Assembly (NCBI GenBank): GCA_009746045.1
Contig: RPFO01000594.1
Span: 974,653-1,038,652, forward strand
DNA length: 64,000 nucleotides
Origin: Mesostigma viride
Taxonomy: Eukaryota > Streptophyta > Mesostigmatophyceae > Mesostigmatales > Mesostigmataceae
Direction of reading: 5' to 3'
The position numbers were made by a program, and so were the translations under genes. The notes below the pieces were generated by a model that saw only the letters and a program-made list of their open reading frames with translations, had not been told where the DNA came from and searched no databases. The number at the start of each line of letters is the position of its first letter. Position 1 is the stretch's first letter. This document shows positions 4,850 to 56,702 of this stretch, one piece after another.

Positions 4850-6376
4850 ATGCCTACCTCTGATCTTGAACGCCTTATTAGTAGATTTACGGCCACTGAG
4901 CCGGAAGCTTTAGCTGCCATTGCTGCCCATCCCCAACAATTAGGCAAGTACCCTTGTAAATTTGTAGGTGGGTTTTTATATGTGCAGATAGCAGATTCTC
5001 CCCCTCAATGGCGCCTGTATGTCCCTCCTATCTGTCGCTCCTCCTTGCTCTTTGAGTTGCATGACTTAGCTGCTCATCAGGGTGGTAAACGGGTACGGGA
5101 CCTAGTAGCCCGCTCTTACTACTGGCCTTCCCTTTTAAAGGATATAGATGAGTATGTTTGAACCTCTCAATCTTGCCAGGAGATGAAACCCAACAATGTA
5201 GGACAGATAGCAGAACCTAGGACCCTACCCGATCCCATCATGCCGTGGGACTCCATTATGATGGATTTTGTAGGACCTTTTAGGAAAAATGATAGAGGTA
5301 ACGCCCAGATCCTTGTTTTCGTAGATCGTTTTACTCGTATGTGTCATCTCGTGCCGTGTCCCCTAGAACTCACCGCACGCGATTGTGCACGCCTATACCT
5401 TAATAATGTATATAGATATCATGGTTTGAGTAGGCAGTTTATTAGTGATAAAGATAAGCTATTTACCTCTGACTTTTGGCAGCAGTTTTTCGCTGCTATC
5501 GGTACCAAGGTTACGTTCGGTACTGCCTATCACTCCTCCTCCTCTCATCTCGTAGAGCGTCTTAATAGGGTAGTGGAAGAAGCGCTGAGGCACTATGTTA
5601 ACGGCTCGGGGAGTGATTGGGAGGATTATCTATGCTTGGTAGAGTTCTCCCTTAACAATTGCCCCCAGGCTGCGCATGGCTATACGCCTTTCTTCCTAGA
5701 TACTGGTAGACAGCCTCTTACTCCTACCTCTCTCTTAGCTAGTCCTTTACGGGACAGGGACGATGTGTCCCGAGATACTGTAGAAGGTGTACAGGCCTTG
5801 CTAGATAAAATGAAAGATGCACATGATCACGCGATTTCAGGGTACCAAAAGGCTCAGGCTAAGTACCTTGCTAGGTTGCGTGCCTCCTTAGATAGAAGAG
5901 CGCCTGAAATAGATATAGGGGATTTAGTCTTAGTAGAAGGCCCCCGTGTTGGCCGTTTTGCTCACAAGTTCGAAGCAGAACTTAAAGTGAAACTTAGGCC
6001 CGCCTTCTTAGGACCCTTCCGTGTGTTGTCTAGAGTAGGTAATTTCTTATATAAAATAGATATCCCTACCTCTTGGCAAACACATTCTAACACCTTCCAT
6101 AGAAGCCAGCTGAAGCTTTATCACCAAAGCACGTTCGCTGGTAGAGAACTAGCTCCTGCCCCTTTAGAGCATAACCCTGATACTGGTGAGGTAGAAGACG
6201 AGGTAGAGAGTATCGTGGCCCATAGAGATATCAAAAAGGGCCGCGGTACTCAGCGCCAGTATAAGGTGAAATGGATGTATGCTCGTAGTGAGGTAGATAA
6301 AGTATGGTACACAGAGAGTGAGTTAGATGGCTGTAGCCGCTTGCTGCAGGAGTACAAAACCCTACACCAGCTCTAG
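4850..6376 (+). pseudogene. pol: family 1 integrase with chromodomain-like tail (copy A), one nonsense codon
   Basis: DDE integrase of about 508 codons, open except for a TGA at 5159-5161; copy B has AGA (Arg) at this position. Domains in order: N-terminal HHCC zinc finger (LHDLAAHQGGKRVRDL, SYYWPSLLKD, then the Cys pair after the stop), catalytic core with the first Asp in MMDFVGPF, second Asp in FISDKDKLF and Glu in HLVERLNRVVEE, a GPF/LVEGPR-type C-terminal module, and a final chromodomain-like segment (VESIVAHRDIKKGRGTQRQY, KVKWMYARSE, VWYTESEL). The tail would steer insertion towards particular chromatin in chromoviruses. It ends with TAG 78 bp upstream of ORF X. Confidence 0.93.
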
Positions 6377-6453: not shown

Positions 6454-8793
6454 ATGGAACCTACCCCTCCGTCGGAGAGCCAGCCGCCTTCCCCTCCACC
6501 GCCTGACCCAGAGTTGTATTTCGAGGCCCTTCCGGGCCGATGGGTCTCCCGTTCGTGTTATCCTGGTGGACCTGTTCAGCATGCCCTCCAGGCTCATCAT
6601 GCGGCATTAGTCAGGGCTGCTCTCTTTGGAGTCGCGTGGTTCGGCCCGGCCCCCGATGATCCGCACCAGCTAGTTGTGCATGGGTTCGACGATGCCGGCC
6701 ATTGTCTTTTAGGATGTGGCTCCCGCTGTCCAGCTTTGGAGCAGATAGCCGCTGTCCTTCAGTGCCCCCGGGTGTTTTCCTACCTGTCTACCCCTGTGGG
6801 CCGCTCCTGCCTACGGGAGGTGTTCCCCTGGCTTCCGGGCGAGGGCGAGGCAGATGTAGATGACAACCCCTGTGACCTCCTACGGGCAGTAGAGTTCATG
6901 GAAATCGCAGACCAGTCAGCGGAGGTAGCAGCTGGCTACCCTTCCCCTACGGACGCCCCAGTCGAGGCGCAGTACACTCCAGCGTATTCGGCCTCAAGTG
7001 TAGCGTCCTCTTCCTCAGTGTCGGCTCCTTCCCCTGTCCCGTCTTCACCACGGTCGACTCGTCGTGCGTCGGTGGAGCCTACCCCTTTGGGGGTGGATCG
7101 CGCACCTGATCATCTTTCGGCGACTGTTTCGGCGATGCAGGCTCAGATCCAGTCCCTGACCGCGGCATTCGGGGCCTTCATGGCGGCCCAGGCGCAGGCT
7201 CCATGCAGCCCCGCCCGGTGGGGTGTCTGTTGTATCTGCGCCCCCTACCCCTTCGGTTGCCACTGCGCCTACTGTTTCGCCTGCGCTGTGCGAGCCTTCG
7301 GTGGCTGCGGTTTCCTCTGTGGCTGCGGCTCCCACGCCTCTGGTTGCCTCTGCGCCTGCGACCGACGTACCCGCGCCTCCGCGCGAATTGCCCGTCCCAG
7401 CGACCGCGCCCGCTGTCGCCGCCTCCGGGCCGCCCGCTGCGCCTTCGCAGCCATTGCGGGGTTTCTTTAGCGACACGGGCGATCTTCCCAGGCTGTGGGA
7501 GGGTGGTCCCCCGCAGAGGATTCCGGTGCCCGATCGACTGGAGCTTGGACGGGAACCAGTCTTATGCCGGATTGCCTGCCCCTACGGGTCCGGTGTTCAA
7601 TATGTGGCCTGAGGGTGCGCCGTCACCGGAGACCGGCGTACCAGTTGCGGTTGCGGGTCCGTCGCGACCCCCTTCGACTTCGGGTCCGGCGCGACCTCCT
7701 GTCGTACCGGCGCCGTCTGCGTCTGTGCCGGTCCCTACTCCTGCTTCGGCCCCTGCCCCGTCGTCCTCGCGGTCTTTGGCTGCGGTTGCATGTGCGGGCC
7801 AGCGGCCCTGATCCTCGCGCCACCCGCGCTGCTGACTCCCTCCGGGAGCTATCCCAGGGCGATCGGGACCGGGCCCCTTCTGTGGTGCATGCGACGCCGG
7901 AGTCGCGCGACACGCCCGTCCCCGGGTATGGTATGTCTGCGCTCGCCTGCCGACAGTGTGACAGCTGCCGCGCGCCTCCGCCGAGCTTGCCATTTCGCCC
8001 GGCCATGTCCTACGGGTTCTCCCAGGTGTGTCGGGCGCCGCGGGACCGTGGCCTACCCATTGAGACTGATCGGCCTCCTTTCGATATGGTTGTTGTAGCC
8101 GATCCTGTGTTCCAGGGTGAGACCCTGGTTCGGCGCGTTCTGTATCGCTGGGCTAGGCGTCACAACGACTTGGACACCTACGGTGGGTTCCAGTGGGCTT
8201 ACCCTCCGCCTCTGGGCATTATGGCTTCGGATGCCCTTACGGTAGAGTTTCCTACGGCGCCGGGTGCTACGTACAGCACGGTTCTCCAGCCCATCCTGGA
8301 GTGGGATGCCCGTCGTCCAGCGCCCCTCCCTGGTCAGGGTCTGGACGCCCGTGGTCATCCCCCTCCTCGGGCTAGCGACTACCTAGAGACGTTCGGGTCG
8401 CGACAGTGTGCTCGTCGGTGGCGCTCCCGTGAGGTTCGGCACATCCGGATGTGGCCGTCTAACGTGGAGCCCCTGGTAAATCTGTTCTTCCCGACGGGTT
8501 TGCGCCCTCGGATCCGGTACCATCGCCTACTCCTGCGGGCCCTCTGTTTGATCGCAGTAGAGCCTTTCCTCCGCCTCTTTGCCTGTGGTTTCCTGGACTG
8601 GGCCCGTGGCCAGGTCGTTCTTACGCAGCATAGGTATTACTGGGCCTTTCTGGGCCTTTTTCCTGATGGCGTGTGGGCCGATGTTTTCCTCACTGTAGAT
8701 AGGCATGACAATGCCGATGAGGTGGCCCATTACCAGGAGTATTTGGATGTTCTGTTGGCCTCGCGTGGCACTTACCAGACTGATGGCCACTAG
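6454..8793 (+). pseudogene. ORF X, extra 3' ORF of family 1 (copy A), two frameshifts
   Basis: A long ORF downstream of integrase, in the position where env lies in retrovirus-like elements, but I see no signal peptide, membrane segment or fusion motif. The start chosen is the first ATG after the integrase stop (copy B has the same context). N-terminal part: Pro-rich, then PELYFEALPGRWVSR and a Cys patch (GHCLLGCGSRCPALEQ). Middle: Ser/Pro/Ala low-complexity linker about 6990-7800 with frame changes near 7205 and again between 7540 and 7800. C-terminal part, about 8010-8790, is one clean frame and includes CGFLDWARGQVVLTQHRYYW. The same fold-sized domain recurs in family 2 (43000-43300 and 52770-53070, reverse strand). 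Function unknown; conservation of protein across families argues it is real coding sequence. Confidence 0.75.
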
Positions 8794-11265: not shown

Positions 11266-13585
11266 ATGGCTGATCCTACCCCTCCGTCGGAGAGCCTGCC
11301 GCCTTCCCCTCCACCACCGGACCCAGAGCTCTACTTCGAGGCCCTTCCGGGCCGCTGGGTGTCACGTTCCAGTTATCCGGGTGGCCTCGTTCAGCCTGCC
11401 CTCCAGGCTCAGCATGCGGCTTTAGTCAGGGCTGCCCTCTTTGGGTCGCGTGGTTCGGCCCGGCCCCGATGATCCGCAACAGCTAGTTGTGCATGGGTTC
11501 GACGATGCCGGGCATTGTCTTTTAGGATGTGGCTCCCGCTGCCCAGCCTTGGGCAGATAGCCGCTGTCCTTCAGTGCCCCCGGGTGTTTTCCTACCTGTC
11601 TACCCCTGTGGGCCGCTCCTGCCTACGGGAGGTGTTCCCTTGGCTTCCGGGCGAGGGCGAGGCAGATGTAGATGACACCCCTGTGACCTCCTACGGGCGG
11701 TCGAGTTCATGGAGATCGCGGACCAGACAGTGGGAGTAGCATTTGGCGACCCTTCCCCTACGGACGCACCAGTCGAGGCGCAGTACACGCCAGAGTATTC
11801 GGCCTCCTCTGCAGCGTCCTCCTCCTCAGTGTCGGCTCCTTCCCCTGTCCCGTCTTCACCACGGTCGACCCGGCGCGCGTCGGTGGAGCCTACCCCTTTG
11901 GGCTCGGATCGTGAGCCTGATCATCTCTCGGCGACTGTTTCTGCGATGCAGGCCAAGATCCAGTCCCTGACCACGGCATTCGGGGCCTTCTTGGCGGCCC
12001 AGGCGCAGGCTCCAGCCACGCCAGGTGGGGTGTCTGTTGTATCTGTGCCCCCTACCCCTTCGGTTGCCTCGGCGCCTACGGTTTCGCCTGCGCTGTGCGA
12101 GCCCTCGGTAGCTGCGGTTTCCTCTGTTGCTGCGGCTCCTACGCCTCCGGCTGTCTCTGCGCCTGCGACCGACGTACCTGCGCCTTCGCGCGAGTCTTCC
12201 GCCCCAGCGGCCGCGCCGCCGTCGTCGCTTCCGGGCCGCCCGCAGCGCCAGCGCCGCCATCGCGGGGTTTCTTTAGCGACCCGGGCGGTCTTCCCAGGCT
12301 TTGGGAGGGTGGTCCCCCGCAGAGGATTCCGGTGCCCGACTGGAGCTTGGATGGTAACCAGTCTTATGCCGGATTGCCTGTCCCTACGGGCCCTGTTTTC
12401 AACATGTGGCCTGAGGGTGCGCCGCCACCGGAGACCGGAGCGCCAGCTGCGGTGGCGGGTCCGTCGCGACCCCCTCCGGCAGCGGGTCCGACGCGACCTC
12501 CTGTTGTACCGGCGCCGTCTGCGTCTGTGCCGGTTCCTACCCCTGCTTCGGCCCCTGCCCCTTCGTCCTCGCGGTCTTTGGCTGCGGTTGTTCGGGCCAG
12601 CGGCCCTGATCCTCGCACCACCCGCGCTGCTGATTCCCTCCGGGAGTTGTCCCAGGGCGATCGGGACCGGGCCCCTTCTGTGGTGCATGCGACGCCGGAG
12701 TCGCGCGACACGCCTGTCCCTGGGTACGGTATGTCTGCGCTCGCCTGCCGACAGTGTGACCTGCCGCGCGCCTCCGCCGAGCTTGCCATTTCGTCCATGT
12801 CCTACGGGTTCTCCCAGGTGTGTCGGGCGCCGCGGGACCGTGGCCTACCCATTGAGACTGATCGGCCTCCTTTCGACATGGTTATTTTAGCTGATCCTGT
12901 GTTCCAGGGCGAGATCCTGGTTCGGCGCGTTCTGTATCGCTGGGCTAGGCGTCACAATGACTTGGACACCTACGGTGGGTTCCAGTGGGCTTACCCTCCG
13001 CCTCTGGGCATTATGGCCTCAGATGCCCTTACGGTAGAGTTTCCTGCGGTGCCGGGTGCTACGTACAGCACGGTTCTCCAGCCCATCCTAGAGTGGGATG
13101 CCCGTCGTCCAGCGCCCATCCCGGGCCAGGGTCTGGACTCCCGTGGCCATCCTCCTCCTCGGGCTAGCGACTACCTCGAGACGTTCGGGTCGCGACAGTG
13201 TGCTCGTCGGTGGCGCTCCCGTGAGGTTCGGCACATCCGGATGTGGCCGTCTAACGTGGAGCCCCTGGTAGATCTGTTCTTCCCGACGGGTTTGCGCCCT
13301 CGGATCCGGTACCATCGCCTACTCCTGCGGGCTCTCTGTTTGATCGCGGTAGAGCCTTTCCTACGCCTCTTTGCCTGTGGTTTCCTGGACTGGGCCCGTG
13401 GCCAGGTCGTTCTTACGCAGCATAGGTATTACTGGGCCTTTCTGGGCCTTTTTCCTGATGGCGTGTGGGCCGATGTTTTCCTCACTGTAGATAGGCATGA
13501 CAATGCCGATGATGTGGCCCACTACCAGGCGTACCTGGATGTTCTGCTGGCCTCTCGTGGCACTTACCAGACGGATGGCAACTAG
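11266..13585 (+). pseudogene. ORF X of family 1 (copy B), frameshifted
   Basis: Second copy of the post-integrase ORF, ATG 75 bp after the integrase stop. Relative to copy A, frame changes fall at different places (near 11445, between 11550 and 11709, and near 12225), so the two copies decayed independently from an ancestral ORF that must have been open. N-terminal PELYFEALPGRWVSR and the Ser/Pro/Ala linker are present. From about 12225 to 13585 a single frame covers the distal linker (GFFSDPGGLPRLWEGGPPQ) and the conserved C-terminal domain (WAYPPPLGIMASDAL, CGFLDWARGQVVLTQ). No known domain recognised. Confidence 0.75.
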
Positions 13586-15300: not shown

Positions 15301-15307
15301 GGAACCT

Positions 15308-25226: not shown

Positions 25227-25346
25227 GCGAAGTACTGCCAAAAAAAGGGACCCTGTTTTGGGCTGGGCGAAGCGAGCGGGTGCCACTAGTCCTATATACT
25301 AATTTAGCAATGTGAGGTAATCTCGCACTATCCAGGGCATCGCGGA

Positions 25347-29040: not shown

Positions 29041-29684
29041 AATCCGCCAGCGAAGCGAGCACCGTACTATTCCAGCGGGCAGCGGGCAGCGTACTGCGCA
29101 CCAATCCGCGAGCGAAGCCAGCACCGTACTATTCCAGCGGGCGCGCAGCGGGCAGCGGGCAGCGGGCAGCGGGCAGTGGGCAGCGGGCAGCGGGCAGTGG
29201 GCAGCGGGCAGCGGGCAGCGGGCAGCGGGCAGCGGGCTGCGGGCTGCGGGCAGCGGGCAGCGGGGCGAAGTACTGCCAAAAAAAGGGACCCTGTTTTGGG
29301 TTGGGCGAAGCCAGCGGGTGACACTAGTCCTATACTACTATACTATTTTCGCAATGTAAGGTAATCCCGCACTATCCAAGGCATCGCGGAGTACACATCC
29401 AATCTTAAAGAACCGGAATCACTAACTACCAATCCGCGCGAAGCGCCCAACAAGCGAGCGAGCGGCCGCTGAAAGCGGCCTGCGCGCAGCGCACGCAGCG
29501 AGCTGTGCGCTGCGCGCGGCGAGCGAGCGAAGCGAGCGAGCACCGTACGGCGAGCCAATCCACGAGCGAAGCGAGCACCGTACTATTCCAGCGGGCAGCG
29601 GGCAGCGGGCCGGCAGCGGGCAGCGGGGCGAAGTACTGCCAAAAAAAGGGACCCTGTTTTGGGCTGGGCGAAGCCAGCGGGTGC
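29041..29684. repeat. satellite-like array, continuation
   Basis: Two more units of the array seen at 24121-27052, including heptamer tracts at 29135-29264 and 29589-29628, cut at the right by the TIR element at 29690. Confidence 0.88.
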
Positions 29685-29689
29685 CACTA

Positions 29690-41362: not shown

Positions 41363-42034
41363 TGTTACGTCCTGTGCCGCCGGGACGGTGCGAAAGATCT
41401 AATCTAGTATAAGGTGCAGTTTAATAAGCCGGCATAGCCGCGCATCCGCGTACCGCGATAGCAAGCAAAGATCGCAGTAAATTGACTAACTGAGCAGCGG
41501 TTTATCCTCAGCTAGGCCTTATAGCATGATTAATTAATCTAGCTATATAACACGGCATGTCATGAGGCAAATGACATCCGGATTAGTGCCCCCTGGTCTG
41601 AGAGAGTCGTCAACACTCGTTTCATTAATCATCAAACCAAAGAGAGAGAGTCCATCGTCCACAGACCAATTTCACCTAGCTGCGCTACCAAGCTGGCAAG
41701 TTGGTGTGCAGGCGCGCCGACATGAGCGCCGATCTTCCAGATACTGCCGTCAAGCCCCAATAGGTTCTGTCTGACGTCTAGGGCCGGTCCGGCCCCTAGA
41801 AGATCTCGTACTTCTGGCTAGGCCCAAAATAACTGGTCCGGAACATACAAAGTACCAAATAAACACACACAAGTCCCGAACTTAGGACAAATTCCCAAAG
41901 AAGTCCCGAACTGAGTCCTATAGTCCGGCGGACTATGAAAGCGAGCTATCGAAAGTCCCAAACGAATAACAACTGACTTTCGACTTATTTATTGAAGGCA
42001 TTGTTACGCCCATACAAAGGTCTGGGCCGTAACA
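41363..42034 (-). repeat. family 2 LTR 1 (3' LTR of copy a)
   Basis: 672 bp. On the plus strand it runs TGTTACGTCC...GGGCCGTAACA. Differences from LTR 2 include an extra CCGGG near 41378 and GACATGAGC against GACATGCGC. The left flank is GCGTTTGTGG. Confidence 0.94.
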
Positions 42035-42047
42035 CTCCTCCCTTCCC
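42035..42047 (-). promoter_or_regulatory. polypurine tract of family 2 copy a
   Basis: Minus strand GGGGAAGGGAGGAG lies immediately before the LTR start TGTTACGGCCC, the expected plus-strand priming site. Confidence 0.85.
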
Positions 42048-42983
42048 CAGGGGACGATAGCTATATCGTCCAGGCTTGGGGCGCACGCAACAAGACAATT
42101 AACACAAACAAACAAACAAGAAAAAAAAAGAAGCTTTTGCAAGCAAAACAAGCAACACACAAAAGCGACAATTGCCCAGGCTGGGCAGTCAGCTATAGAG
42201 AACAATAGTACAAAATCGGCCATGGGGATACTATGTCCCAACCCCTGTTCGCCAGCGGGTTAGTAAAGCCAATTCTCCCCGGCGTTGCCACACAAGGACA
42301 ATTCCTTGATAGCCGATGGGATGCTGTCGCCATCCCGTTGCAATCCATGAGGGCAATGTGACTGGAAACTCTGGATCTCTGGACTGGAACAGCAGGAACA
42401 GGAACCCCCATAATCCTTCCTGGAATCTCCCCCACTTCCCACAAATCCATCAATTAATTTCCCTCTCACCGCTGCCCTCCCTGGCGAGCGCGCTAGTGCA
42501 GGGCCGCGGCAGCATATAAAATTCCGCCAGCGACCCGAAACAGAGGCGCACACCAATCAACGCCATGCAAGACAATTAACCCAATTGATGGGGTCGACCG
42601 ATGCCAATACTACCGGATGCATGGTTGCAGGCGACGATGATTATCACAACTGGGATAATAATACGCGCGTGGCAGACATGTTGCGCGCGACCATGCACAG
42701 TGGCGGGCACGCAACAGTTGGGGTGCGCAACAGTGATCCGCGGGGCGCGCACGCGCCAGCATGTGACAGCGTTGTAAACGCCACCGCCGAGCAAAGGCCA
42801 AAATATGGATCACGGCAGTCGTCATCAGCGACTACGGGAGGTGCTCGCGTGCAGAACTGTCCAATGCGGTCGATGCAGGGAGGACCACCAAGCTGAATCA
42901 CGTCTTGCCTATGCGGAGATGCGCGCGCAAGCGCTGAACTCGTCCTCTCGTCTGCAAGACTGTCCATGAGGAGGTCGCGACCC
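42048..42983 (-). other. 3' untranslated region of family 2 copy a
   Basis: About 940 bp between the ORF X stop and the polypurine tract, nearly identical in copy b (51822-52755). It contains an A-rich stretch (AACAAACAAACAAG) and only short frames. I see no function in it. Confidence 0.5.
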
Positions 42984-44102
42984 TCACATTCCTCCAATGC
43001 TAGGGCCCACCCCACCCGACCGCGCCTTCCGTTGACGATACTCGTGGAGTACCTGGCGACCCTGCTCACCAATTTCCTCGAGGATCTTCCCGGGGTTAGC
43101 GAGGTGATCCGCATTGTATGCGAGCTGGTATTCGTTCACGTTGGTGCGCGTTTGAGCGAGGTCTACCCACGTCCCGGTGGGCCAGTACGACATGAAGGCG
43201 GCCAGGTATTGCGGGTGCGTGAACATGATTGTGCCCGCGTTCCAATCAATAACCCCACATCCATGCTCCGCAAAGAAACCTCCCGCCATGGTCAACACTA
43301 CGACGCGCACCTGGAGAGCGTTGAAGCGAAAGCCCGGAGCCCTCACAAAGTTGGGCACAACCCAGTCGAGGAATGCCTCTCCCTCGCACGGAGCATACTT
43401 GGGACAGTCAACCTTTCGAGGTTTACCATCTACCATGTATTTTGGCAGCTCCCGCTTGGGGCCGTAACGCGTACCAGAACCCTCTGGCGTCGATTCGAGG
43501 CAGTCCTGGGGTCGCGGGGCCGCCCTCCCTGGGTGCAAGTCGAAACAGACTAGCTCGCGCATGGAGCCTCGCTCCACATACGCATGGGTTCCTGCCTCAA
43601 AGTGCAGCGGTTGCGGTCGGTGATAGTCCGCGCTGGCGACGGCCACGAACGGCGGTGGTGGGAGTTCAATGTAGACGGGAACACCCCGAAACTCGCGTAA
43701 GGGGCGTACTCGTTGTGGGCCGGGAAACGCGCTGACGTAAGCGCCCACCGTCCATGGCGCCGGTCGAGCCACCGTCTGTACGATCAACGACCCCTGCGCG
43801 GGAGATATAAAGCCCACCGCTGGTATCGGGCCACGCCTCTCTGGTAGATGGGCGCGGGACGCCTCCACGCGGGCCACCCGCTCGGAGTAAGTTCGAGCCT
43901 CTCGGCGCGGACTCTGGGAATCCGCGGAGACGCTGCCCGCCGACACCTCGTTCGTACATGCGCGACGTCTAACTTCTCGCTGGGCATCCGGTTCCACTTG
44001 GGGGCGTTTCTGGTTGCGCTCAATAACCTCGGAACCGGGCTTAGTCAGGTCGGTCAAGCCGCCCGTTCGCCGGGTCGGTCCCGTCCCGACAAGAACCGTC
44101 AT
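42984..44102 (-). CDS. ORF X of family 2 (copy a), intact
   Basis: 372 codons from the first in-frame ATG (44102; the frame is open further upstream without an ATG). N-terminal part Thr/Arg/Gly-rich with PTRRTGG repeats; then VYIELPPPPFVAV, a middle with YMVDGKPRKVDCPKYAPCEG, and the C-terminal domain GCGVIDWNAGTIMFTHPQYL followed by AAFMSYWPTGTWVDL. This aligns with the C-terminal domain of family 1 ORF X (CGFLDWARGQVVLTQHRYYW, AFLGLFPDGVWADV): shared pattern CG-(F/V)-(L/I)-DW-x2-G-x3-(L/F)-T-x2-x-Y-x2-AF...P-x-G-x-W-x-D. Position after integrase is the same. Function unknown; no membrane segment or signal peptide seen. Confidence 0.82.
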   Translation of the reverse strand: MTVLVGTGPTRRTGGLTDLTKPGSEVIERNQKRPQVEPDAQREVRRRACTNEVSAGSVSADSQSPRREARTYSERVARVEASRAHLPERRGPIPAVGFISPAQGSLIVQTVARPAPWTVGAYVSAFPGPQRVRPLREFRGVPVYIELPPPPFVAVASADYHRPQPLHFEAGTHAYVERGSMRELVCFDLHPGRAAPRPQDCLESTPEGSGTRYGPKRELPKYMVDGKPRKVDCPKYAPCEGEAFLDWVVPNFVRAPGFRFNALQVRVVVLTMAGGFFAEHGCGVIDWNAGTIMFTHPQYLAAFMSYWPTGTWVDLAQTRTNVNEYQLAYNADHLANPGKILEEIGEQGRQVLHEYRQRKARSGGVGPSIGGM

Positions 44103-44250
44103 TCCGCCCGTGCCCTGAGTCCGAATGGTTCGCACGGCATCACCGTCCTGTTGCTAGATCGGTGTCACCACAGGTGTGACAGAACCGCCCGTTCGCCGAG
44201 TCAGCCCTGCTTGCACATGGCGTTGGGGATGCTTGTCGACCCAATTACCA

Positions 44251-45035
44251 CATTACAATTCGTTCAAGTGGCCCGCCGGAGCGGCTGTACAATTTTTCCC
44301 AGTGAGCGCGCTGCCAAGTGTACTTGTGGGCAAATTTTTAGGTGCCCCGTCACTTCGAGGTACTAAAAATTAGGCTACGGTACGAATTCAGCGAATTTCA
44401 GCGAATTTTCAGTCGAACCAAAGGAAGTGACGGCAACTACCAAAAAGTTTCCGTTACGAATTTTCAGCCCAACACTCGCGCAAAATGAAGTGACGGCAAC
44501 TACCAACAAGTTTCCGTTACGAATTTTCACTCCCACACGTTTGCACAAGAGGAAGTGACGGCAACTACCAAAAAGTTTCCGTTACGAATTTTCAGTCCCA
44601 CACTTCGCGCAAATTTTAGTAGGGCTGCACGCAAGCTACCTTTCAAAATTTTGCGCTAGTATGGAACGCATTTCATTCGTCTGGAGGAACGCTGCCCGCC
44701 AACTACCCCCGTTCAGAAAGTTCCGCCGAAATTTACTTGAGATTTGGAAATCTGAACGTCCGCGCAAATTTTAGTAGGGCTGCACGCAAGCTACCTTTCA
44801 AAATTTTGCGCAAGTATGGAACGCAATTCATTCGTCCGGAGGAATGCTGCTCGTCAACTGCCCCCGTTCAGAAAGTTGCGCCGAACTTTACTTGAGATTT
44901 GGAAATCTGAACGTGCGGTTGGAGTTTCGCGGGGAAACCCAAGTTCCCGAGTAATTCACCAATGACGCGCTTCGAACACTTGCCCGCTAAAACCTAAGCA
45001 GCCGCTCCGGCTGGCCACTTAAACGAAACTTGATG
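44251..45035. mobile_element. TIR element E2, 785 bp non-autonomous
   Basis: Same sequence as E1 with the same ends (CATTACAATTCG...AACTTGATG). The empty site survives in copy b (AATTACCACGATGG near 54017); here it reads AATTACCA | E2 | ACGATGG, so at most one base (A) is duplicated. Confidence 0.9.
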
Positions 45036-45148: not shown

Positions 45149-47727
45149 CTAGTGGAGGGCATGCTGGGCCTTATACTCGCGAAGCAGACGTTCACACCCT
45201 TCTAGCTCATTCTCGGTTCGCCACGAATCCTCGTAATCATGCTGAGCAAAACGCCACCGTACGCGATACAGTCGCTGTCTACCTCTCCCACGCTTGATGT
45301 CCCGGTGGCCCACAATCTCGGCCACCTCGTCTTCCTGTTCTCCAGTCTCGGGGATGTACTCGACAGGGGCCGGCGGGTTGAGCCGACCTTGGATGGAGTT
45401 CTGGTGGTATAACTTGAGCTGGTCTCGATGGAAGTTGGAGGAAGTGTTCCAGGAGCTCGGGATGTCCACCTTGAACATCACATCTCCAAACTTCTCCAGA
45501 ACCTTGTGTGGCCCCAGGAACATAGGACGGAGCTTTGTCTTGAGCTCACACTCTAACTTCTCAGAGAAACGTCCTAGGCGGGGGCCTTCCACCAGTACCC
45601 AGTCGCCCACCTCGATGGCCGGCGTGCGCGCATCTAGGCGGCCAGCAGTCCTCGCCATATAGCGCTCCGCGGCGGCCTGGTAGCCCTTGACCGCACTGTC
45701 ATGGGCCTGGCGCATCTGGACCAGCAGCCTCTCCACCCCTTCGAGGGTGTCTCGCCGGACCGACTTTTCAGCTAAGGCTGGGCTTGTGAGAAGGTCAGTC
45801 GGCGTGAGCGGATGCCTGCCCGTGTTGAGGAAGAATGGTGTGAAGCCATGAGCTGCCTGGGGGGCGTTATTCAGGGAGAACTTTACCAAGCCCAAGAACT
45901 CTTCCCAGTTGCTTCCCACCGCGTCGGTGTAATGGCGCATGGTCTCTTGCACTGTGCGGTTCAGCCTCTCCACCAGGTGGGAGGACGAGCTGTGATATGC
46001 TGTCCCCAGCGACACCTTGGTGCCCAGGCATTCAAAGAACTCCTGCCAGAAGCGGGCCGTGAACAGCTTGTCTCGGTCCGATATGAATTGCCGGCTGAGT
46101 CCGTGGTACCTGAACACGTGGTGAAGGTATAGCTTAGCGCAAGCCTCGGCCGTGAGCTCGGCCGGACATGGTGCCAGGTGACACATGCGCGTCAAACGGT
46201 CCAGGAAAACCAGAATCATGCTGTTGCCATTCTTGGTCTTCCGGAAGGGGCCAACAAAATCCATCATCAAGGAATCCCAAGGGCCCACTGGGTCTGGTAG
46301 GGTCTGGGGGACCGCCTGTGAGCCCGTATTGCGGGACTTCATGATCTGACATGATGGACACTCGCGCACGTACGTCTCAATGTACTCTCGCATGCCTGGC
46401 CAGTAGAAGTTCTTTCGGCCCGTGGCAGCAAGCGGTGGATCCCTTGGTGGCCACCGGCGAGAGAGTCATGGAGCTCATGGAGCAGAGCCGCTCGACATAA
46501 CTCCGGGACGTACAGGCGCCAGCAGTCTGGCCTCACCATGACATAGAGTCGCCCGTCCTGGAACTTGCACGGGAGCTTGCCCATCTGCTTGGGGTGCGAC
46601 CTGATTGCCTTTAAGGCCGCGGGCTCCGTGACAGTGAACCGACTAATCAACGTCTCCAGGACAGAAGTGATCGTGTACGTGTCCGCCTCCTCCTCAAGGG
46701 TTTGGTGCACGTACTCCGAAAAAATGGTAGGGGGCCCGATGCGCTGCAGGTGAAAAATTCCCTGAGCCGGTACCACGTGGCTGAGTGGCACTCGTGACCG
46801 GGACCCCTCCCTTTCCCCGGGGGCGCGCACGTCCTCGCGCGCGGCCTCCCAGTCGGGAGACAGGTCGTCCTGGGTCGTGCGACCGGTGTGGAACAGATAG
46901 CGACTGTGCGGCGACTTGTTGCGGGGCTGGGTGACTTCCCGCTCGTGCGTGATGTTATGCACGTCGGGGCCCTGCACTTGGTATTCGCTGACAGGACTCC
47001 AAAAGGAACCGTCAGGGAACCACACCACGCGACGCCGAATGCTAATGTCCACATCCTGCGCGTCCAGCCAGTCGATGCCGATGATGATGTCGGCAGCTCC
47101 GAGCGATGCGACCGTGGCTGGGAGCTCCACAGGGATGCCTTGAATCACAGCCTTGATCTCAACCCGACCAGGCGAGGGGCTCTTGCGACCATCTGAATAG
47201 GTCACATTCACCACTGTCGCATGTGGCCGGATGTCGTATCCTGCGCGACGCGCCAATGCCTCGTTGACGAACGACGTAGACGCACCCGTGTCCACCATGA
47301 ACTGCACGTCCATGACGGTCTTGTCCTTGAGGTAGGGGTCTAATGCTGATCCCGGTACAGCCAGACCTCCCCTAAACAGGAGCAAGTTGCGGGTACCAGC
47401 CGGAGTTGCGCGCGTAGGCTGGTCGGAGCTCGCTGCGCTACCCGTGGCCGGATGCGTGTTTGGAGCAGAAGTCTCGCCCAAGGATGCATCCGCACTTGTA
47501 TTCGCTACAAGCGGGGTGCGACTATCTACTGTAACGACTGATTCTGCGCCCGCGCTGGTATTCGCTACCAACGGGGTGTCCTTATCTAAGCTGTCTATCT
47601 GCCCGACGTTATTGACTTGCGCTACCCTATCTACCTGTCCTACATCTACCTCTATCCGTGTAGGCAGGGACACTACGCACGAGGAACGGAGGGCCGGGAG
47701 ACCGCCTCGTTCGACCGCCCGGTCCAC
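45149..47727 (-). pseudogene. pol: family 2 protease-integrase polyprotein without RT (copy a), one frameshift
   Basis: First open part 47727-46339: acidic/Thr-rich linker, retropepsin with FMVDTGASTSFVNEALARRA and DIIIGIDWLDAQ, the post-protease VVWFPDGSFWSPVSEYQV, and then directly YLFHTGRTTQDDLS and the pre-integrase segment (LISRFTVTEPAALKAIRSHP) with the zinc-finger HELHDSLAGGHQGIHRLL. A single missing T near 46409 (TTTCGGCCC; copy b TTTCTGGCCC) moves to the second part 46393-45149: RECPSCQIMKS, the DDE core (MMDFVGPF, SDRDKLF, HLVERLNR) and a chromodomain-like tail (EIVGHRDIKRGRGRQRLYR). The roughly 1.5 kb RT-RNase H block found in family 1 between VIWFPDSSYW and YLFHT is absent. The N-terminus overlaps gag by 55 bp in the -1 frame. 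Confidence 0.92.
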
Positions 47728-49847
47728 TCTTCCCCCTCTACCTCATCCTCCTCGTCGCCATGCCCATAGCCGGCGACCGCCTTGCCATCCATAACCCCCG
47801 AGGCGCCATTACCCGAGTCCTGTTGCTGTGAGAACAACTCATTCAACTCGCGGTTCACCCGCTGGAACGAAGGACCCGTAGCGCGGGGCGTCTGGTGCTG
47901 CGTGGGACGCTGCCGGGCGTCCTGCAACTTGGCTGCGCGCTCGCCCGCGTTGCGAGGCCGGTCTGGGCGCCGTGCTTGTTCCGGGCGCTTACCGAAGGCA
48001 GGCCCGGAGAAACGGGGTGACGTCTGCTCGTCGCCACGATCGCGATCCCGTGGTGGTCGCGTGCAGTCCTTCTTGAGATGACCGACCTCGCCGCACCGGA
48101 AGCATCGCGCCTTGGACGCATCGATTGCATTGACCTGGGGCGCTTCATACTCGCCGTCCTCCTGCTCGTGGTCGATAATGTCCTCAGAGGACCCATCTTG
48201 GTCCACCGTAGTGAAGTGGACGCGACGCGGTGCAGCACCAGCATGCCGATAGGTGACCGCTGCGCGGCGGCGTGCGAGCACATCTGACACCTTTAGAAGG
48301 TACTGCTGGATCTCGATCACATCCCACTGCTCCCACGGTATCTCAGCAAAGCGCTTTAGCACCTCATCTAGGAGCTCCGGACTCAGCGCCTCAATGAACC
48401 GCGACCTATATTCGGTCCAGGTCAAGTCCTCAAGGCGAGCCGAGAATGCTTCAAACTCTGTCAGAAACTCGCGGAACGGTGTGGTGCCTTGGCGTAGCTT
48501 GGCAAAAGCCAGACGCTCGTGGAGCTTCCAGTCAGGGGGCACCAGCTTGCGCTCAATGCGCTCTAGTAGCTCCTCTACTGTGCGAGGGTACAAGCGCGAC
48601 GCGACACTCTCACAGTTGAGTATGCCGACCACTGAGGGATCCATGCAGTTGGTGACGACGTAGGAGATAAGAACCTCGGTAGCTAGCTCCCACCCATTGT
48701 GGTTGCACCACGCCCAGTAGATCTGTACCCACATACGCGTCCATTCGTCGATCTCGCGAGGGTTCATAGTCGCGCGCAGCTTGGGCACTGGTTTAAAGTC
48801 AGGCATGGGCGGCGCCTTAAACGCGTCGGCCCGAGGTCCGCCCACTGCGCGATACGGCGGAACATTAAAGATCGACAACGAGTCATCTGCCGATGCAGGC
48901 GCTGACCTAGTCGCGCTGCGTTGTAGCCAGACAGACGAGGGATGCGCGTAGCCAGGATCACTGGGTGCCATGCGACTCAAGTTGAGGTTATTGCCATGCG
49001 ACACGCTCGGCCGCGCAGGTCCGGCTGCTGGGACATTGCGCGCCGGATGGGACGACGCGGGCCTAGCCTCATCGTATACCGGCGGTGGAACCCTAGCCTC
49101 GTCCTGGGTCCACAGCGATGTCGCATTGGACTGCAGGTCACTGCCAAAAGAAACCCGTCGACCGCTCGCCCAGGGATGTTGTAATCGTTGGGCACGTTGC
49201 GCGTGATAATAGGTCGCGTTCTGACTAAGCGGACCATACATCTGCGACCCGGTCGGCTGGCTTAGCGGCTGCTGCTGCTGCTGCAACGGCGGAAGCTGCT
49301 GCGGCTGCTGCCACTGTTGCTGCTGCGGCGGTGGCTGCTGCTGCTGTACTGGCTGCTGCTGCCACTGTTGCTGCTGCTGCGGCGGTGGCTGCTGCTGCTG
49401 TACTGGATGCTGCTGCCACTGCTGCGACAACGGCTGTTGCTGTTCCGAATGCTGCTGTGGGGACTGCACTGGGTGCTGCTGCGGCTGCCCGGGCGGGCGT
49501 TGCTGCGGCTGCACTGACTGGTGCTGGGCTGCACTCGTGGGATTCGATCTGGGCCGGGTCTCATCACCTGCCCGTTCCATCAGCTGGTTATACTCAGCCT
49601 GCATTCGCTGCGGCTGGTATTCCTCGCTATTATCCATCCTATCCGCTCCTCGTGGCCTTCGCGGCTCATGGGAGGTACTAGCCAGCTCACCTGGGTGACC
49701 TACAGGGCTGCCTTGCTGGTAGGACGAGCCCTGTTGTGATACCTCCTGTACTTGGTACTCTGGGCTGCCCTGCCTATCCAAGTCTGCACCTCCCTCCTCG
49801 GAATGACTCCTAGTCGTGCCGCGTACCTTCTTTTTACCCCGCGGCAT
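47673..49847 (-). CDS. gag: family 2 gag (copy a), intact
   Basis: 724 codons from the ATG at 49847 (MPRGKKKVRG); the frame is open 29 codons further upstream but this ATG fits the basic N-terminus. Domains: charged N-terminus; a long Gln/Pro-rich region (poly-Q from CAG repeats, 49240-49500); then the gag core (ELATEVLISYVVTNCMDPSV, VEELLERIERKLVPPDWKLH, YRSRFIEALSPELLDEVLK) and one CCHC knuckle CFRCGEVGHLKKDC near 48100. The core is homologous to family 1 gag. It ends in a Glu-rich stretch overlapping pol, implying a programmed -1 frameshift or a similar mechanism. Confidence 0.93.
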   Translation of the reverse strand: MPRGKKKVRGTTRSHSEEGGADLDRQGSPEYQVQEVSQQGSSYQQGSPVGHPGELASTSHEPRRPRGADRMDNSEEYQPQRMQAEYNQLMERAGDETRPRSNPTSAAQHQSVQPQQRPPGQPQQHPVQSPQQHSEQQQPLSQQWQQHPVQQQQPPPQQQQQWQQQPVQQQQPPPQQQQWQQPQQLPPLQQQQQPLSQPTGSQMYGPLSQNATYYHAQRAQRLQHPWASGRRVSFGSDLQSNATSLWTQDEARVPPPVYDEARPASSHPARNVPAAGPARPSVSHGNNLNLSRMAPSDPGYAHPSSVWLQRSATRSAPASADDSLSIFNVPPYRAVGGPRADAFKAPPMPDFKPVPKLRATMNPREIDEWTRMWVQIYWAWCNHNGWELATEVLISYVVTNCMDPSVVGILNCESVASRLYPRTVEELLERIERKLVPPDWKLHERLAFAKLRQGTTPFREFLTEFEAFSARLEDLTWTEYRSRFIEALSPELLDEVLKRFAEIPWEQWDVIEIQQYLLKVSDVLARRRAAVTYRHAGAAPRRVHFTTVDQDGSSEDIIDHEQEDGEYEAPQVNAIDASKARCFRCGEVGHLKKDCTRPPRDRDRGDEQTSPRFSGPAFGKRPEQARRPDRPRNAGERAAKLQDARQRPTQHQTPRATGPSFQRVNRELNELFSQQQDSGNGASGVMDGKAVAGYGHGDEEDEVEGEEWTGRSNEAVSRPSVPRA
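49240..49500 (-). repeat. CAG-type trinucleotide repeat coding poly-Q in gag
   Basis: Imperfect CAG/CAA runs on the minus strand (CTG on plus) giving QQQQ blocks separated by P and W residues. Identical in layout in copy b (58215-58475). The Ala- and Leu-rich frames on other strands here are by-products. Confidence 0.85.
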
Positions 49848-50006
49848 GTTTACCAGTACCACATCCACAAGAGAAGGAAGGAAGGAGAGAGGACGAAGGA
49901 GGAAAATGCCATGCACATGCCCACAAGCAATCAACCAAGCGACTGCCCTACGTTATTCTGCTAATGTAGCTATTATATAGTAAGCTATAATTAGTACTCT
50001 ACTCCT

Positions 50007-51141: not shown

Positions 51142-51808
51142 TGTTACGTCCTGTGCCGGACGGTGCGAAAGATCTAATCTAGTATAAGGTGCAGTTTAAT
51201 AAGCCGGCATAGCCGCGCATCCGCGTACCGCGATAGCAAGCAAAGATCGCAGTAAATTGACTAACTGAGCAGCGGTTTATCCTCAGCTAGGCCTTATAGC
51301 ATGATTAATTAATCTAGCTATATAACACGGCATGTCATGAGGCAAATGACATCCGGATTAGTGCCCCTGGTCTGAGAGAGTCGTCAACACTCGTTTCATT
51401 AATCATCAAACCAAAGAGAGAGAGTCCATCGTCCACAGACCAATTTCACCTAGCTGCGCTACCAAGCTGGCAAGTTGGTGTGCAGGCGCGCCGACATGCG
51501 CGCCGATCTTCCAGATACTGCCGTCAAGCCCCAATAGGTTCTGTCTGACGTCTAGGGCCGGTCCGGCCCCTAGAAGATCTCGTACTTCTGGCTAGGCCCA
51601 AAATAACTGGTCCGGAACATACAAAGTACCAAATAAACACACACAAGTCCCGAACTTAGGACAAATTCCCAAATAAGTCCCGAACTGAGTCCTATAGTCC
51701 GGCGGACTATGAAAGCGAGCTATCGAAAGTCCCAAACGAATAACAACTGACTTTCGACTTATTTATTGAAGGCATTGTTACGCCCATACAAAGGTCTGGG
51801 CCGTAACA
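51142..51808 (-). repeat. family 2 LTR 2, shared by copies a and b
   Basis: 667 bp with TGTTACG...CGTAACA ends. It serves as 5' LTR of copy a and 3' LTR of copy b. Polypurine tract of copy b follows at 51809-51821. Confidence 0.94.
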
Positions 51809-52755: not shown

Positions 52756-53978
52756 TCACATTCCTCCAATGCTAGGGCCCACCCCTCCCGACCGCGCCTT
52801 CCGTTGACGATACTCGTGGAGTACCTGGCGACCCTGCTCACCAATTTCCTCGAGGATCTTCCCGGGGTTAGCGAGGTGATCCGCATTGTATGCGAGCTGG
52901 TATTCGTTCACGTTGGTGCGCGTTTGAGCGAGGTCTACCCACGTCCCGGTGGGCCAGTACGACATGAATGCGGCCAGGTATTGCGGGTGCGTGAACATGA
53001 TTGTGCCCGCGTTCCAATCAATAACCCCACATCCATGCTCCGCAAAGAAACCCCCGCCATGGTCAACACTACGACGCGCACCTGGAGAGCGTTGAAGCGA
53101 AAGCCCGGAGCCCTCACAAAGTTGGGCACAACCCAGTCGAGGAATGCCTCTCCCTCGCACGGAGCATACTTGGGACAGTCAACCTTTCGAGGTTTACCAT
53201 CTACCATGTATTTTGGCAGCTCCCGCTTGGGGCCGTAACGCGTACCAGAACCCTCTGGCGTCGATTCGAGGCAGTCCTGGGGTCGCGGGGCCGCCCTCCC
53301 TGGGTGCAAGTCGAAGCAGACTAGCTCGCGCATGGAGCCTCGCTCCACATACGCATGAGTTCCTGCCTCAAAGTGCAGCGGTTGCGGTCGATGATAGTCC
53401 GCGCTGTCGACGGCCACGAACGGCGGTGGTGGGAGTTCAATGTAGACGGGAACACCCCGAAACTCGCGTAAGGGGCGTACTCGTTGTGGGCCGGGAAACG
53501 CGCTGACGTAAGCGCCCACCGTCCATGGCGCCGGTCGAGCCACCGCCTGTACGAGCAAAGACCCCTGCGCGGGAGATATAAAGCCCACCGCTGGTATCGG
53601 GCCACGCCTCTCTGGTATATGGGCGCGGGACGTCTCCACGCGGGCAACCGCTCGGAGTAAGTTCGAGCTCTCGGCGCGGACTCTGGGAATCCGCGGAGAC
53701 GCTGCCCGCCGACACCTCGTTCGTACATGCGCGACGTCTAACTCTCGCTGGGCATCCGGTTCCACTTGGGGGCGTTTCTGGTTGCGCTCAATAACCTCGG
53801 AATCGAGCTTAGTCAGGTCGGTCGAGCCGCCCGTTCGCCGGGTCGGTCCCGTCCCGACAAGAACCGTCATTCCGCCCGTGCCCTGAGTCCGAATGGTTCG
53901 CACGGCATCACCGTCCTGTTGCTGGATCGGTGTCACCACAGGTGTGACAGAACCGCCCGTTCGCCGAGTCGGCCCTGC
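52756..53978 (-). pseudogene. ORF X of family 2 (copy b), one frameshift
   Basis: Same protein as 42984-44102. It is open from upstream (frame open to 54011 with non-ATG codons; ATG equivalent near 53870) down to about 53055, where one base is missing in AAACCCCCGCC (copy a AAACCTCCCGCC). The C-terminal domain continues in the frame ending at 52756. Small differences occur in the N-terminal third (a local double shift near 53640-53735). Confidence 0.78.
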
Positions 53979-54113
53979 TTGCACATGGCGTTGGGGATGC
54001 TTTCGACCCAATTACCACGATGGTGCGTACACATCGACGTGAATAACACAAGTGCCTTCGCGGCATCCTGGCTACACGTGATCAAGCCCGTTGTCATAGC
54101 GCCCCCACCACTA

Positions 54114-56702
54114 CTACCTTCGCGGTAGCCTAGTGGAGGGCATGCTGGCCTTATACTCGCGAAGCAGACGTTCACACCCTTCTAGCTCATTCTCGGTTCG
54201 CCACGAATCCTCGTAATCATGCTGAGCAAAACGCCACCGTACGCGATACTGTCGCTGTCTACCTCTCCCACGCTTGATGTCCCGGTGGCCCACGATCTCG
54301 GCCACCTCGTCTTCCTGTTCTCCAGTCTCGGGGTTGTACTCGACAGGGGCCGGCGGGTTGAGCCGACCTTGGATGGAGTTCTGGTGGTATAACTTGAGCT
54401 GGTCTCGATGGAAGTTGGAGGAAGTGTTCCAGGAGCTCGGGATGTCCACCTTGAACATCACATCTCCAAGCTTCTCCAGAACCTTGTGTGGCCCCAGGAA
54501 CATAGGACGGAGCTTTGTCTTGAGCTCACCCTCTACCTTCTCAGAGAAACGTCCTAGGCGGGGGCCTTCCACCAGTACCCAGTCGCCCACCTCGATGGCC
54601 GGCGTGCGCGCATCTAGGCGGCCAGCAGTCCTCGCCATATAGCGCTCGCGGCGGCCCGGTAGCCCTTGACCGCACTGTCATGGGCCTGGCGCATCTGGAC
54701 CAGCAGCCTCTCCACCCCTTCGAGGGTGTCTCGCCGGACCGACTTTTCAGCTAAGGCTGGGCTTGTGAGAAGGTCAGTCGGCGTGAGCGGATGCCTGCCC
54801 GTGTTGAGGAAGAATGGTGTGAAGCCATGAGCTGCCTGGGGGGCGTTATTCAGGGAGAACTCCACCAAGCCCAAGAACTCTTCCCAGTTGCTTCCCACCG
54901 CGTCGGTGTAGTGGCGCATGGTCTCTTGCACTGTGCGGTTCAGCCTCTCCACCAGGTGGGAGGACGAGCTGTGATATGCTGTCCCCAGCGACACCTTGGT
55001 GCCCAGGCATTCAAAGAACTCCTGCCAGAAGCGGGCCGTGAACAGCTTGTCTCGGTCCGATATGAATTGCCGGCTGAGTCCGTGGTACCTGAACACGTGG
55101 TGAAGGTATAGCTTAGCGCAAGCCTCGGCCGTGAGTTCGGCCGGACATGGTGCCAGGTGACACATGCGCGTCAAACGGTCCAGGAAAACCAGAATCATGC
55201 TGTTGCCATTCTTGGTCTTCCGGAAGGGGCCAACAAAATCCATCATCAGGAATCCCAAGGGCCCATGGGTCTGGTAGGGTCTGGGGGACCGCCTGTGAGC
55301 CCGTATTGCGGGACTTCATGATCTGACATGATGGACACTCGCGCACGTACGTCTCAATGTACTCTCGCATGCCTGGCCAATAGAAGTTCTTTCTGGCCCG
55401 TGGCAGCAAGCGGTGGATCCCTTGGTGGCCACCGGCGAGAGAGTCATGGAGCTCATGGAGCAGAGCCGCTCGACATAACTCCGGGACGTACAGGCGCCAG
55501 CAGTCTGGCCTCACCATGACATAGAGTCGCCCGTCCTGGAACTTGCACGGGAGCTTGCCCATCTGCTTGGGGTGCGACCTGATTGCCTTTAAGGCCGCGG
55601 GCTCCGTGACAGTGAACCGACTAATCAACGTCTCCAGGACAGAAGTGATCGTGTACGTGTCCGCCTCCTCCTCAAGGGTTTGGTGCACGTACTCCGAAAA
55701 AATGGTAGGGGGCCCGATGCGCTGCAGGTGAAAAATTCCCTGAGCCGGTACCACGTGGCTGAGTGGCACTCGTGACCGGGACCCCTCCCTTTCCCCGGGG
55801 GCGCGCACGTCCTCGCGCGCGGCCTCCCAGTCGGGAGACAGGTCGTCCTGGGTCGTGCGACCGGTGTGGAACAGATAGCGACTGTGCGGCGACTTGTTGC
55901 GGGGCTGGGTGACTTCCCGCTCGTGCGTGATGTTATGCACGTCGGGGCCCTGCACTTGGTATTCGCTGACAGGACTCCAAAAGGAACCGTCAGGGAACCA
56001 CACCACGCGACGCCGAATGCTAATGTCCACATCCTGCGCGTCCAGCCAGTCGATGCCGATGATGATGTCGGCAGCTCCGAGCGTGCGACCGTGGCTGGGA
56101 GCTCCACAGGGATGCCTTGAATCACAGCCTTGATCTCAACCCGACCAGGCGAGGGGCTCTTGCGACCATCTGAATAGGTCACATTCACCACTGTCGCATG
56201 TGGCCGGATGTCGTATCCTGCGCGACGCGCCAATGCCTCGTTGACGAACGACGTAGACGCACCCGTGTCCACCATGAACTGCACGTCCATGACGGTCTTG
56301 TCCTTGAGGTAGGGGTCTAATGCTGATCCCGGTACAGCCAGACCTCCCCTAAAAGGAGCAAGTTGCGGGTACCAGCCGGAGTTGCGCGCGTAGGCTGGTC
56401 GGAGCTCGCTGCGCTACCCGTGGCCGGCTGCGTGCTTGGGGCAGAGTCTCGCCCAAGGATGCATCCGCACTTGTATTCGCTACAAGCGGGGTGCGACTAT
56501 CTACTGTAACGACTGATTCTGCGCCCGCGCTGGTATTCGCTACCAACGGGGTGTCCTTATCTAAGCTGTCTATCTGCCCGACGTTATTGACTTGCGCTAC
56601 CCTATCTACCTGTCCTACATCTACCTCTATCCGTGTAGGCAGGGACACTACGCACGAGGAACGGAGGGCCGGGAGACCGCCTCGTTCGACCGCCCGGTCC
56701 AC
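54114..56702 (-). pseudogene. pol: family 2 protease-integrase polyprotein without RT (copy b), several frameshifts
   Basis: Same domain order as copy a: protease (DTGASTSFVNEAL, 56290 region), direct passage to the pre-integrase segment and zinc finger (frame 56030-55113, intact across the site that is broken in copy a), DDE core (55258-54614) and tail (54638-54114). Private one-base losses near 56445, 56353, 56085, 55249, 55266 and 54650, each absent from copy a. The protease-to-integrase passage without RT is identical in both copies, so the absence of RT predates their separation. Confidence 0.9.

What the first reader, a model, noticed from the sequence alone, without database searches (positions are those of the whole stretch)
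42984..44102. An extra post-integrase ORF ('ORF X') shared by two divergent Ty3/gypsy families
Family 1 (6454-8793, 11266-13585) and family 2 (42984-44102, 52756-53978) both carry a long ORF between integrase and the polypurine tract. Their N-termini are unlike each other, but the C-terminal roughly 100 residues align: family 1 CGFLDWARGQVVLTQHRYYW...AFLGLFPDGVWADV, family 2 CGVIDWNAGTIMFTHPQYL...AFMSYWPTGTWVDL. Retention of a protein domain in two families with otherwise different ORF layouts suggests a functional, possibly undescribed, retrotransposon protein rather than random open sequence. It is in the env position but lacks visible signal peptide or membrane segments.
Basis: partly seen in the sequence, partly recalled or inferred. 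Interest (0 to 1): 0.86.

Follow-up and report, generated by a model that had tools for sequence, protein, structure and literature searches.

The report
Extra gene in algal jumping elements
Three related families of retrotransposons in a green alga (probably Mesostigma viride) carry a third gene after gag and pol that encodes a conserved protein of unknown kind, kept working by natural selection, so it probably does something for the element and does not look like an envelope protein.

Summary
The C-terminal domains of the post-integrase ORFs of families 1 and 2 are homologous (BLASTP E=7e-12; hhalign 95.5%; Smith-Waterman 123 against at most 68 in 4000 shuffles). Of the window copies only F2a is one open frame, but the genome (440 Mb, probably Mesostigma viride) holds intact ones: 148 of 150 scored matches to a family 3 ORF X have no stop, with open frames up to 824 aa. 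Nine F1 ORFs of 741-816 aa give pN/pS 0.07 in the C-terminal domain; 40 F2 copies give 0.27 against 1.1-1.2 in the other frames. ORF X is a real element gene: acidic N-terminal domain, P/S/A/T-rich linker and compact C-terminal domain in F1 and F3, C-terminal domain only in F2. No Pfam, PHROG, PDB-sequence or Foldseek match and no relative outside Mesostigma was found, within stated limits. Env is unlikely: no signal peptide, almost no glycosylation sites. I read it as an intracellular accessory protein; its biochemical role is not shown. Ten of 40 F2 copies share a frameshift, so it is not strictly needed in cis.

The parts
42984..44102 (-). F2a ORF X, the only window copy open from ATG to stop
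   Evidence: stop-to-stop ORF 42984-44153, 389 aa
42987..43529 (-). F2a C-terminal part homologous to F1 and F3
52756..54011 (-). F2b ORF X, broken by a 1-nt deletion near 53053; last ~100 codons out of frame
6454..8793 (+). F1a ORF X, frames broken in the N part and linker; C-terminal part open
11266..13585 (+). F1b ORF X, frames broken in the N part; C-terminal part open
8002..8790 (+). F1a C-terminal part (263 aa), no indel against F1b
12794..13582 (+). F1b C-terminal part (263 aa)
   Evidence: structure model of 13145-13582
5162..6373 (+). F1a integrase with chromodomain, directly upstream of ORF X
45149..46465 (-). F2a integrase with chromodomain
46339..47742 (-). F2a protease and start of integrase; no reverse transcriptase between them
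47673..49952 (-). F2a Gag (759 aa ORF, zinc knuckle)
42035..42048 (-). polypurine tract of F2a
   Evidence: sequence
41363..42034 (-). 3' LTR of F2a (TGTTACG...CGTAACA)
51142..51808 (-). LTR shared by the tandem pair F2a and F2b
44250..45035 (.). 786-bp insert between integrase and ORF X of F2a, absent from F2b

Best explanation
ORF X is a third gene of a lineage of chromodomain Ty3/gypsy elements of this alga (by its proteins Mesostigma viride). SHOWN: it lies in sense after integrase (before the 3' LTR in F2, where the LTR was seen), its C-terminal domain is homologous in three families, and it is under purifying selection, strongest in that domain. In intact F1 and F3 copies it is one protein of about 750-775 aa from a conserved ATG: acidic N-terminal domain (137-139 aa), acidic P/S/A/T-rich linker (362-373 aa), neutral to slightly basic C-terminal domain (250-262 aa). 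F2 keeps only the C-terminal domain on an unrelated N part. INFERRED: in F1 and F3 translation starts at that ATG, 75-77 nt after the pol stop, from a spliced or shorter RNA or by reinitiation, because the leader before it evolves almost neutrally. INFERRED: the protein works inside the cell in the element's own cycle; the C-terminal domain is the working module, and the acidic, probably disordered linker holds the N-terminal domain away from it. Most likely it is an adaptor of the particle or pre-integration complex (nuclear entry or targeting), since it has no recognised enzyme domain, no signal peptide and no glycosylation pattern. It can probably act in trans, because F2 copies with a shared frameshift have multiplied.
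For: Homology. Selection: F1a/F1b C part 21 synonymous against 12 nonsynonymous (omega 0.18), P=1e-4 with the observed substitution spectrum, 0 indels in 789 nt against 6 in 936 nt of 3' noncoding DNA; F1 against F3 dN/dS 0.27 in the C domain (other frames 1.26, 1.92) and 0.15 in the N domain; nine F1 ORFs: leader 0.73, N domain 0.31, linker 0.35, C domain 0.07; 40 F2 copies: C half 0.27, other frames 1.2 and 1.1. Abundance: 2305 first-look candidates, 150 scored, 148 without a stop inside the match. Intact architecture; an F3 locus with gag, PR, RT, IN and ORF X in order: L085. Physical properties. No known domain.
Against: No transcript, protein or mutant evidence. Ten of 40 F2 copies share a 1-nt deletion (nine at one position, one a base beside it) that truncates the domain; they are closer to each other (0.7%) than to the rest (1.4%), so a sublineage multiplied with a broken copy. 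By codon position the F2 polymorphisms are only weakly skewed (24, 20, 36), and F2a against F2b alone shows no signal (5, 5, 7). The adaptor role rests on absence of other features. The 284-residue model is poor (mean pLDDT 42.7); the C-terminal model is only moderate (pLDDT 70.5, pTM 0.61).
Confidence: 0.68

Rival explanations
1. ORF X antagonises host defence (silencing or restriction), like accessory proteins of complex retroviruses, and is not part of the core cycle.
For: It evolves faster than integrase: F1/F3 integrase 90% identical against 64-65% in the ORF X C domain, F1/F2 integrase 62% against 27% over the aligned 153 residues. F2 copies with a shared frameshift still multiplied.
Against: Within F1 the C domain is almost frozen (pN/pS 0.07), unlike a fast arms race; Gag also diverges fast between these families (33-35%), so speed is not specific.
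Confidence: 0.17
2. ORF X is an envelope-like protein for cell exit and entry.
For: Env position; one helix with a Kyte-Doolittle window of 1.92 in F1 and 1.56 at the matching place in F2.
Against: No hydrophobic N-terminus (first 30 residues of the N domain average -0.46 to -1.10 in three copies), 0-1 NxS/T sites in each of the three, the helix is less hydrophobic in F3 (1.32) and contains charged residues.
Confidence: 0.05
3. A captured host gene carried as cargo, without a role in transposition.
For: Capture of host sequence by LTR elements is documented in plants (PMC7264820).
Against: Present in three families related through their integrases; the protein searches list no relative other than five Mesostigma entries, at that tool's sensitivity; purifying selection within the elements.
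Confidence: 0.05
4. Open but non-coding sequence (GC-rich or constrained for RNA reasons).
For: Other long ORFs exist in these GC-rich stretches, also antisense.
Against: Frame-specific selection, low pN/pS and protein homology between F1 and F2 at saturated synonymous sites.
Confidence: 0.01

Closest known systems
Sense additional ORFs between pol and 3' LTR of plant LTR retrotransposons (aORF-3S; Athila, Bagy2; PMC7264820, parts 1 and 2 of 3 read)
   Same: Position, orientation, presence in many copies, unknown function.
   Different: Those are described as env-like, some with transmembrane segments and, in Bagy2, splicing. ORF X has no clear signal or membrane segment, no detectable relative, and sits in chromodomain elements of a streptophyte alga.
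Antisense aORFs of Grande, RIRE2 and Retand, including TRP28 (PMC11963269, abstract and background read)
   Same: Long pol-to-3'LTR region with a conserved protein; suggested nuclear or regulatory role.
   Different: ORF X is in sense orientation and has no Pfam match.
ORF3 proteins of bdelloid rotifer LTR retrotransposons (PMC5408684, abstract and list of sections read)
   Same: Third ORF after pol, partly non-envelope.
   Different: Those are enzymes or fusion proteins of known families (DEDDy exonuclease, GDSL esterase, paramyxovirus-like fusion protein); ORF X matches no Pfam family.

Membership tests
Chromovirus (chromodomain Ty3/gypsy) | integrase core plus C-terminal chromodomain | tested here: met
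   PF00665 and PF00385 above cut-off in F1 and F2
Chromovirus (chromodomain Ty3/gypsy) | gag-PR-RT-RH-IN order between LTRs | tested here: inconclusive
   gag, PR, RT and IN in order in F3 locus L085 and F2 locus L048; RNase H not separately tested; the two window F2 copies lack RT; LTRs seen for F2 only
Sense additional ORF (aORF-3S) | sense ORF between pol and 3' LTR, conserved in most copies | tested here: inconclusive
   sense and after integrase in F1, F2, F3, 3' LTR seen for F2 only; copies were picked by ORF X, so the share of all elements that carry it was not measured (integrase search unanswered)
Env-like protein | signal peptide or hydrophobic N-terminus | tested here: not met
   hydropathy of first 30 residues negative in L074, L080, L084; no dedicated predictor on hand
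Env-like protein | transmembrane segment | tested here: inconclusive
   one borderline helix, 1.92 / 1.56 / 1.32 in F1 / F2 / F3
Env-like protein | spliced subgenomic mRNA | not testable with these tools
   no transcript data
Retand/Grande antisense aORF, TRP28 | antisense orientation and TRP28 domain | tested here: not met
   sense orientation; no Pfam family at E<=1 on the 816 and 774 aa ORFs
Rotifer-type enzymatic ORF3 (DEDDy, GDSL) | Pfam domain of that enzyme | tested here: not met
   no Pfam family at E<=1

The most novel reading that the evidence does not exclude
ORF X founds a new protein family, perhaps a new fold, that serves as a trans-acting third component (particle or pre-integration adaptor) of a successful lineage of chromoviruses at the base of the streptophytes. 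It arose independently of Env and is supplied in trans to defective relatives, while RT-less copies that still carry Gag, integrase and ORF X in turn depend on others.
Probability: 0.3. Interest if true: 0.72.

Novelty: new variant of a known kind. Interest (0 to 1): 0.52.

Why it matters
Gag and Pol are considered sufficient for LTR retrotransposition (PMC7264820). A third protein whose C-terminal domain shows pN/pS 0.07, and whose matched part is free of stops in 148 of 150 scored places of one genome, says that these elements gain from something more. Because the host has many near-identical intact copies, the question of what non-envelope third genes of plant-lineage retrotransposons do can be tested directly.

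Tried and rejected

Origin from gag or integrase duplication: the C domain of F1 or F2 scores no better than many shuffles against Gag of F1 and F2 and integrase of F1 (24 to 241 of 300 shuffles as good).

F2a/F2b comparison alone: too close to be informative; an earlier NG86 figure for it (0.81-0.85) is spoiled by frameshifts and was dropped.

Not in print, as far as searched: searches listed no paper whose title or abstract start describes an additional ORF in Mesostigma elements. Both Mesostigma genome papers were seen only as passages and, for PMC6947507, section 2.3; neither held main text contains the word gypsy. PMC2774666 was seen as passages; PMC6317226 only in a listing.

Asked but unanswered: F2 protein against the whole genome and F2 integrase DNA. 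So families between F2 and F1/F3, and the share of integrase copies that carry ORF X, are unknown.

Full report
WHERE THIS IS. The window lies in an assembly of 439.9 Mb in 2243 contigs. The ORF X protein of family 1 (F1) matches five EukProt proteins, all tagged Mesvir1, at 65-97% identity, and one of them, P0003, is found at 100% identity at several places of this assembly. I take the host to be Mesostigma viride, a streptophyte alga (taxonomy; that the tag means this species is my reading). Its genome paper reports 60,339 LTR retroelements (section 2.3 of PMC6947507).

THE ELEMENTS. F1 (plus strand) and F2 (minus strand) are chromodomain Ty3/gypsy elements whose integrases are 62% identical. 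The F2 copies a and b stand in tandem and share an LTR. Both lack reverse transcriptase: the coding sequence runs from protease straight into integrase. Of eight F2 loci fetched from elsewhere in the genome, five have RT upstream of integrase (L047-L051); in three of these (L047, L049, L051) the two parts of the window's joined ORF break at the same residue, 277. One (L054) lacks RT in the same way as the window, and two are incomplete there (L052, L053). So F2 has RT-bearing members and a reduced form without RT that still has Gag, protease, integrase and ORF X.

THE HOMOLOGY. BLASTP of F2a against F1b aligns 153 residues at 27%, E=7e-12 for the single comparison. F2b, whose frame is broken, gives only E=0.004 against F1a. 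A profile of four F1/F3 sequences (two kept after filtering) against F2a gives probability 95.5% and E=1.4e-8 over 89 columns. Smith-Waterman scores 123; the best of 4000 shuffles was 68. The signal is confined to the C-terminal half; the middle part gives 67 of 1000 shuffles as good, and the F1 N-terminal domain has no counterpart in F2. A third family, F3 (P0003 and locus L047), is 64-65% identical to F1 in the C domain, and a 35-residue core there is 89% identical (31 of 35).

INTACT COPIES. One search covered the genome with P0003: 2305 first-look candidates, of which 150 were scored; 148 of 150 have no stop inside the match, nine rows have an open frame of 774 aa, and the longest is 824 aa. 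I fetched 20 of those loci, chosen for variety. Nine F1 loci have ORFs of 741-816 aa; seven of these (L070, L073-L077, L080) are open across the conserved ATG, while L071 and L072 change frame near their N end. F3 locus L084 has 774 aa. L083 (737 aa) was left out of the counts because its upstream part looks foreign. The other nine are shorter, 227-664 aa. In the seven F1 loci the open frame begins inside the last codons of integrase, one frame off; in F3 it follows the integrase stop in the same frame. In both, an in-frame ATG lies 75-77 nt after the integrase stop (window F1a: stop ends 6376, ATG 6454). The leader before that ATG evolves with pN/pS 0.73, the parts after it at 0.31, 0.35 and 0.07, which points to the ATG as the start. 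This is inference; no transcript was seen.

SELECTION. F1a against F1b: 21 synonymous and 12 nonsynonymous changes in 263 codons, omega 0.18; with the observed substitution spectrum P=1e-4. The N part (6454-7198 in the F1a frame) gives 35 against 24, P=5e-6. F1 against F3: C domain dS 1.10, dN 0.295, ratio 0.27, with 1.26 and 1.92 in the shifted frames; N domain ratio 0.15 at dS 1.85. Nine F1 ORFs, all 36 pairs: N domain 0.31, linker 0.35, C domain 0.07 (pS 0.141, pN 0.0096); the frame changes of L071 and L072 are likely to raise the N-domain figure. Forty F2 copies (the 40 scored of 103 candidates, two of them the window's own): 0.43 in the N part, 0.49 in the middle, 0.27 in the C half, against 1.2 and 1.1 in the C half in shifted frames; in the N part one shifted frame is at 0.74, so the frame contrast is weaker there. 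Pairs of copies are not independent, so these ratios carry no tested P value. By site the F2 skew is modest: 24, 20 and 36 polymorphic sites at codon positions 1, 2 and 3.

EVIDENCE THAT PULLS THE OTHER WAY. In the C-terminal half, 23 of 40 F2 copies have full coverage and no indel (one of these, L032, has a stop somewhere in the reference frame); two matches end before it or inside it, and 15 have an indel. Ten of those 15, F2b among them, share a 1-nt deletion at the same place or, in one, a base beside it. These ten differ from each other by 0.7%, from the rest by 1.4%, and the rest differ among themselves by 1.9%, so they look like a sublineage that multiplied with a truncated ORF X. Either ORF X acts in trans or F2 can do without it. 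Also, the loci were found through ORF X, so I cannot say what share of elements carries it.

WHAT THE PROTEIN LOOKS LIKE. From the conserved ATG in three intact copies (L074, L080, L084): N domain 137-139 aa, pI 4.6-5.8, with 4-5 Cys; linker 362-373 aa, pI 4.7-4.9, 51-55% P, S, A or T; C domain 250-262 aa, pI 7.8-8.4. There is no hydrophobic N-terminus and at most one NxS/T site per protein. F2 ORF X is 372 aa, pI 9.3. AlphaFold2 on 146 residues of F1b with six sequences gives pLDDT 70.5 and pTM 0.61, with the order strand, two helices, hairpin, helix, short strand, long helix. No solved or viral structure matches it convincingly, and no Pfam, PHROG or PDB-sequence family was found (one search shows one chance-level Pfam row at E=0.76). 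With six sequences in the alignment a missing fold match says little.

RATE. ORF X changes faster than integrase: F1/F3 90% in integrase against 64-65% in the C domain; F1/F2 62% against 27%. Gag between these families is at 33-35%, so the speed resembles Gag.

MECHANISM. The firm part is that ORF X is a selected, element-encoded protein. The inferred part is its role. Env is unlikely on sequence grounds. An enzyme is not indicated: no known family. A two-domain protein with an acidic, low-complexity linker and a compact, neutral to slightly basic domain suits an adaptor, and nuclear or regulatory roles have been proposed for antisense additional ORFs in plants (PMC7264820). I put the adaptor reading first and defence antagonism second.

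STATUS. Sense additional ORFs after pol are known in plant LTR elements; this one is a new variant: non-envelope-like, two-domain, in chromoviruses of an early-branching streptophyte, with no recognised relatives. The searches listed no paper describing it.

Noticed in passing
46339-47742 and F2b equivalent near 55311-56717: Both window F2 copies lack reverse transcriptase while keeping Gag, protease, integrase and ORF X; five of eight other F2 loci have RT upstream of integrase, L054 lacks it too.
   Followed up: partly
53053 (F2b); L011, L012, L016, L023-L025, L027, L035, L036: Shared 1-nt deletion in ORF X marks a sublineage of F2 copies that multiplied with a truncated protein.
   Followed up: partly
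44250-45035 and 25346-26138: A 786-793 bp repeat with imperfect terminal inverted repeats, 98% identical in two places; in F2a it sits between integrase and ORF X and is absent from F2b.
   Followed up: partly
4914-14522 and 14522-18012: The integrase to ORF X part of F1 is tandemly duplicated (4.8 kb, 95%), and an inverted gag-RT piece follows directly; real rearrangement or assembly artefact not decided.
   Followed up: no
41933-42259, minus strand: A 108-aa strongly hydrophobic open frame (37 windows above 1.6) between ORF X and the LTR of F2, running into the LTR; the DNA is T-rich, so it may be chance.
   Followed up: no
7202, 7531, 7787, 7999: Four separate 4-nt insertions in F1a relative to F1b, an unusual recurrence of one length; gap placement depends on the alignment.
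   Followed up: no
49229-49512 and 58204-58487: Gln/Pro-rich short repeats in the long N-terminal extension of F2 Gag.
   Followed up: no
24077-29747: Array of diverged direct repeats of about 0.1-0.6 kb; not identified.
   Followed up: no
L047 5756-8127: A piece of an F3 element (chromodomain end plus ORF X) lies next to an F2 element in opposite orientation.
   Followed up: partly
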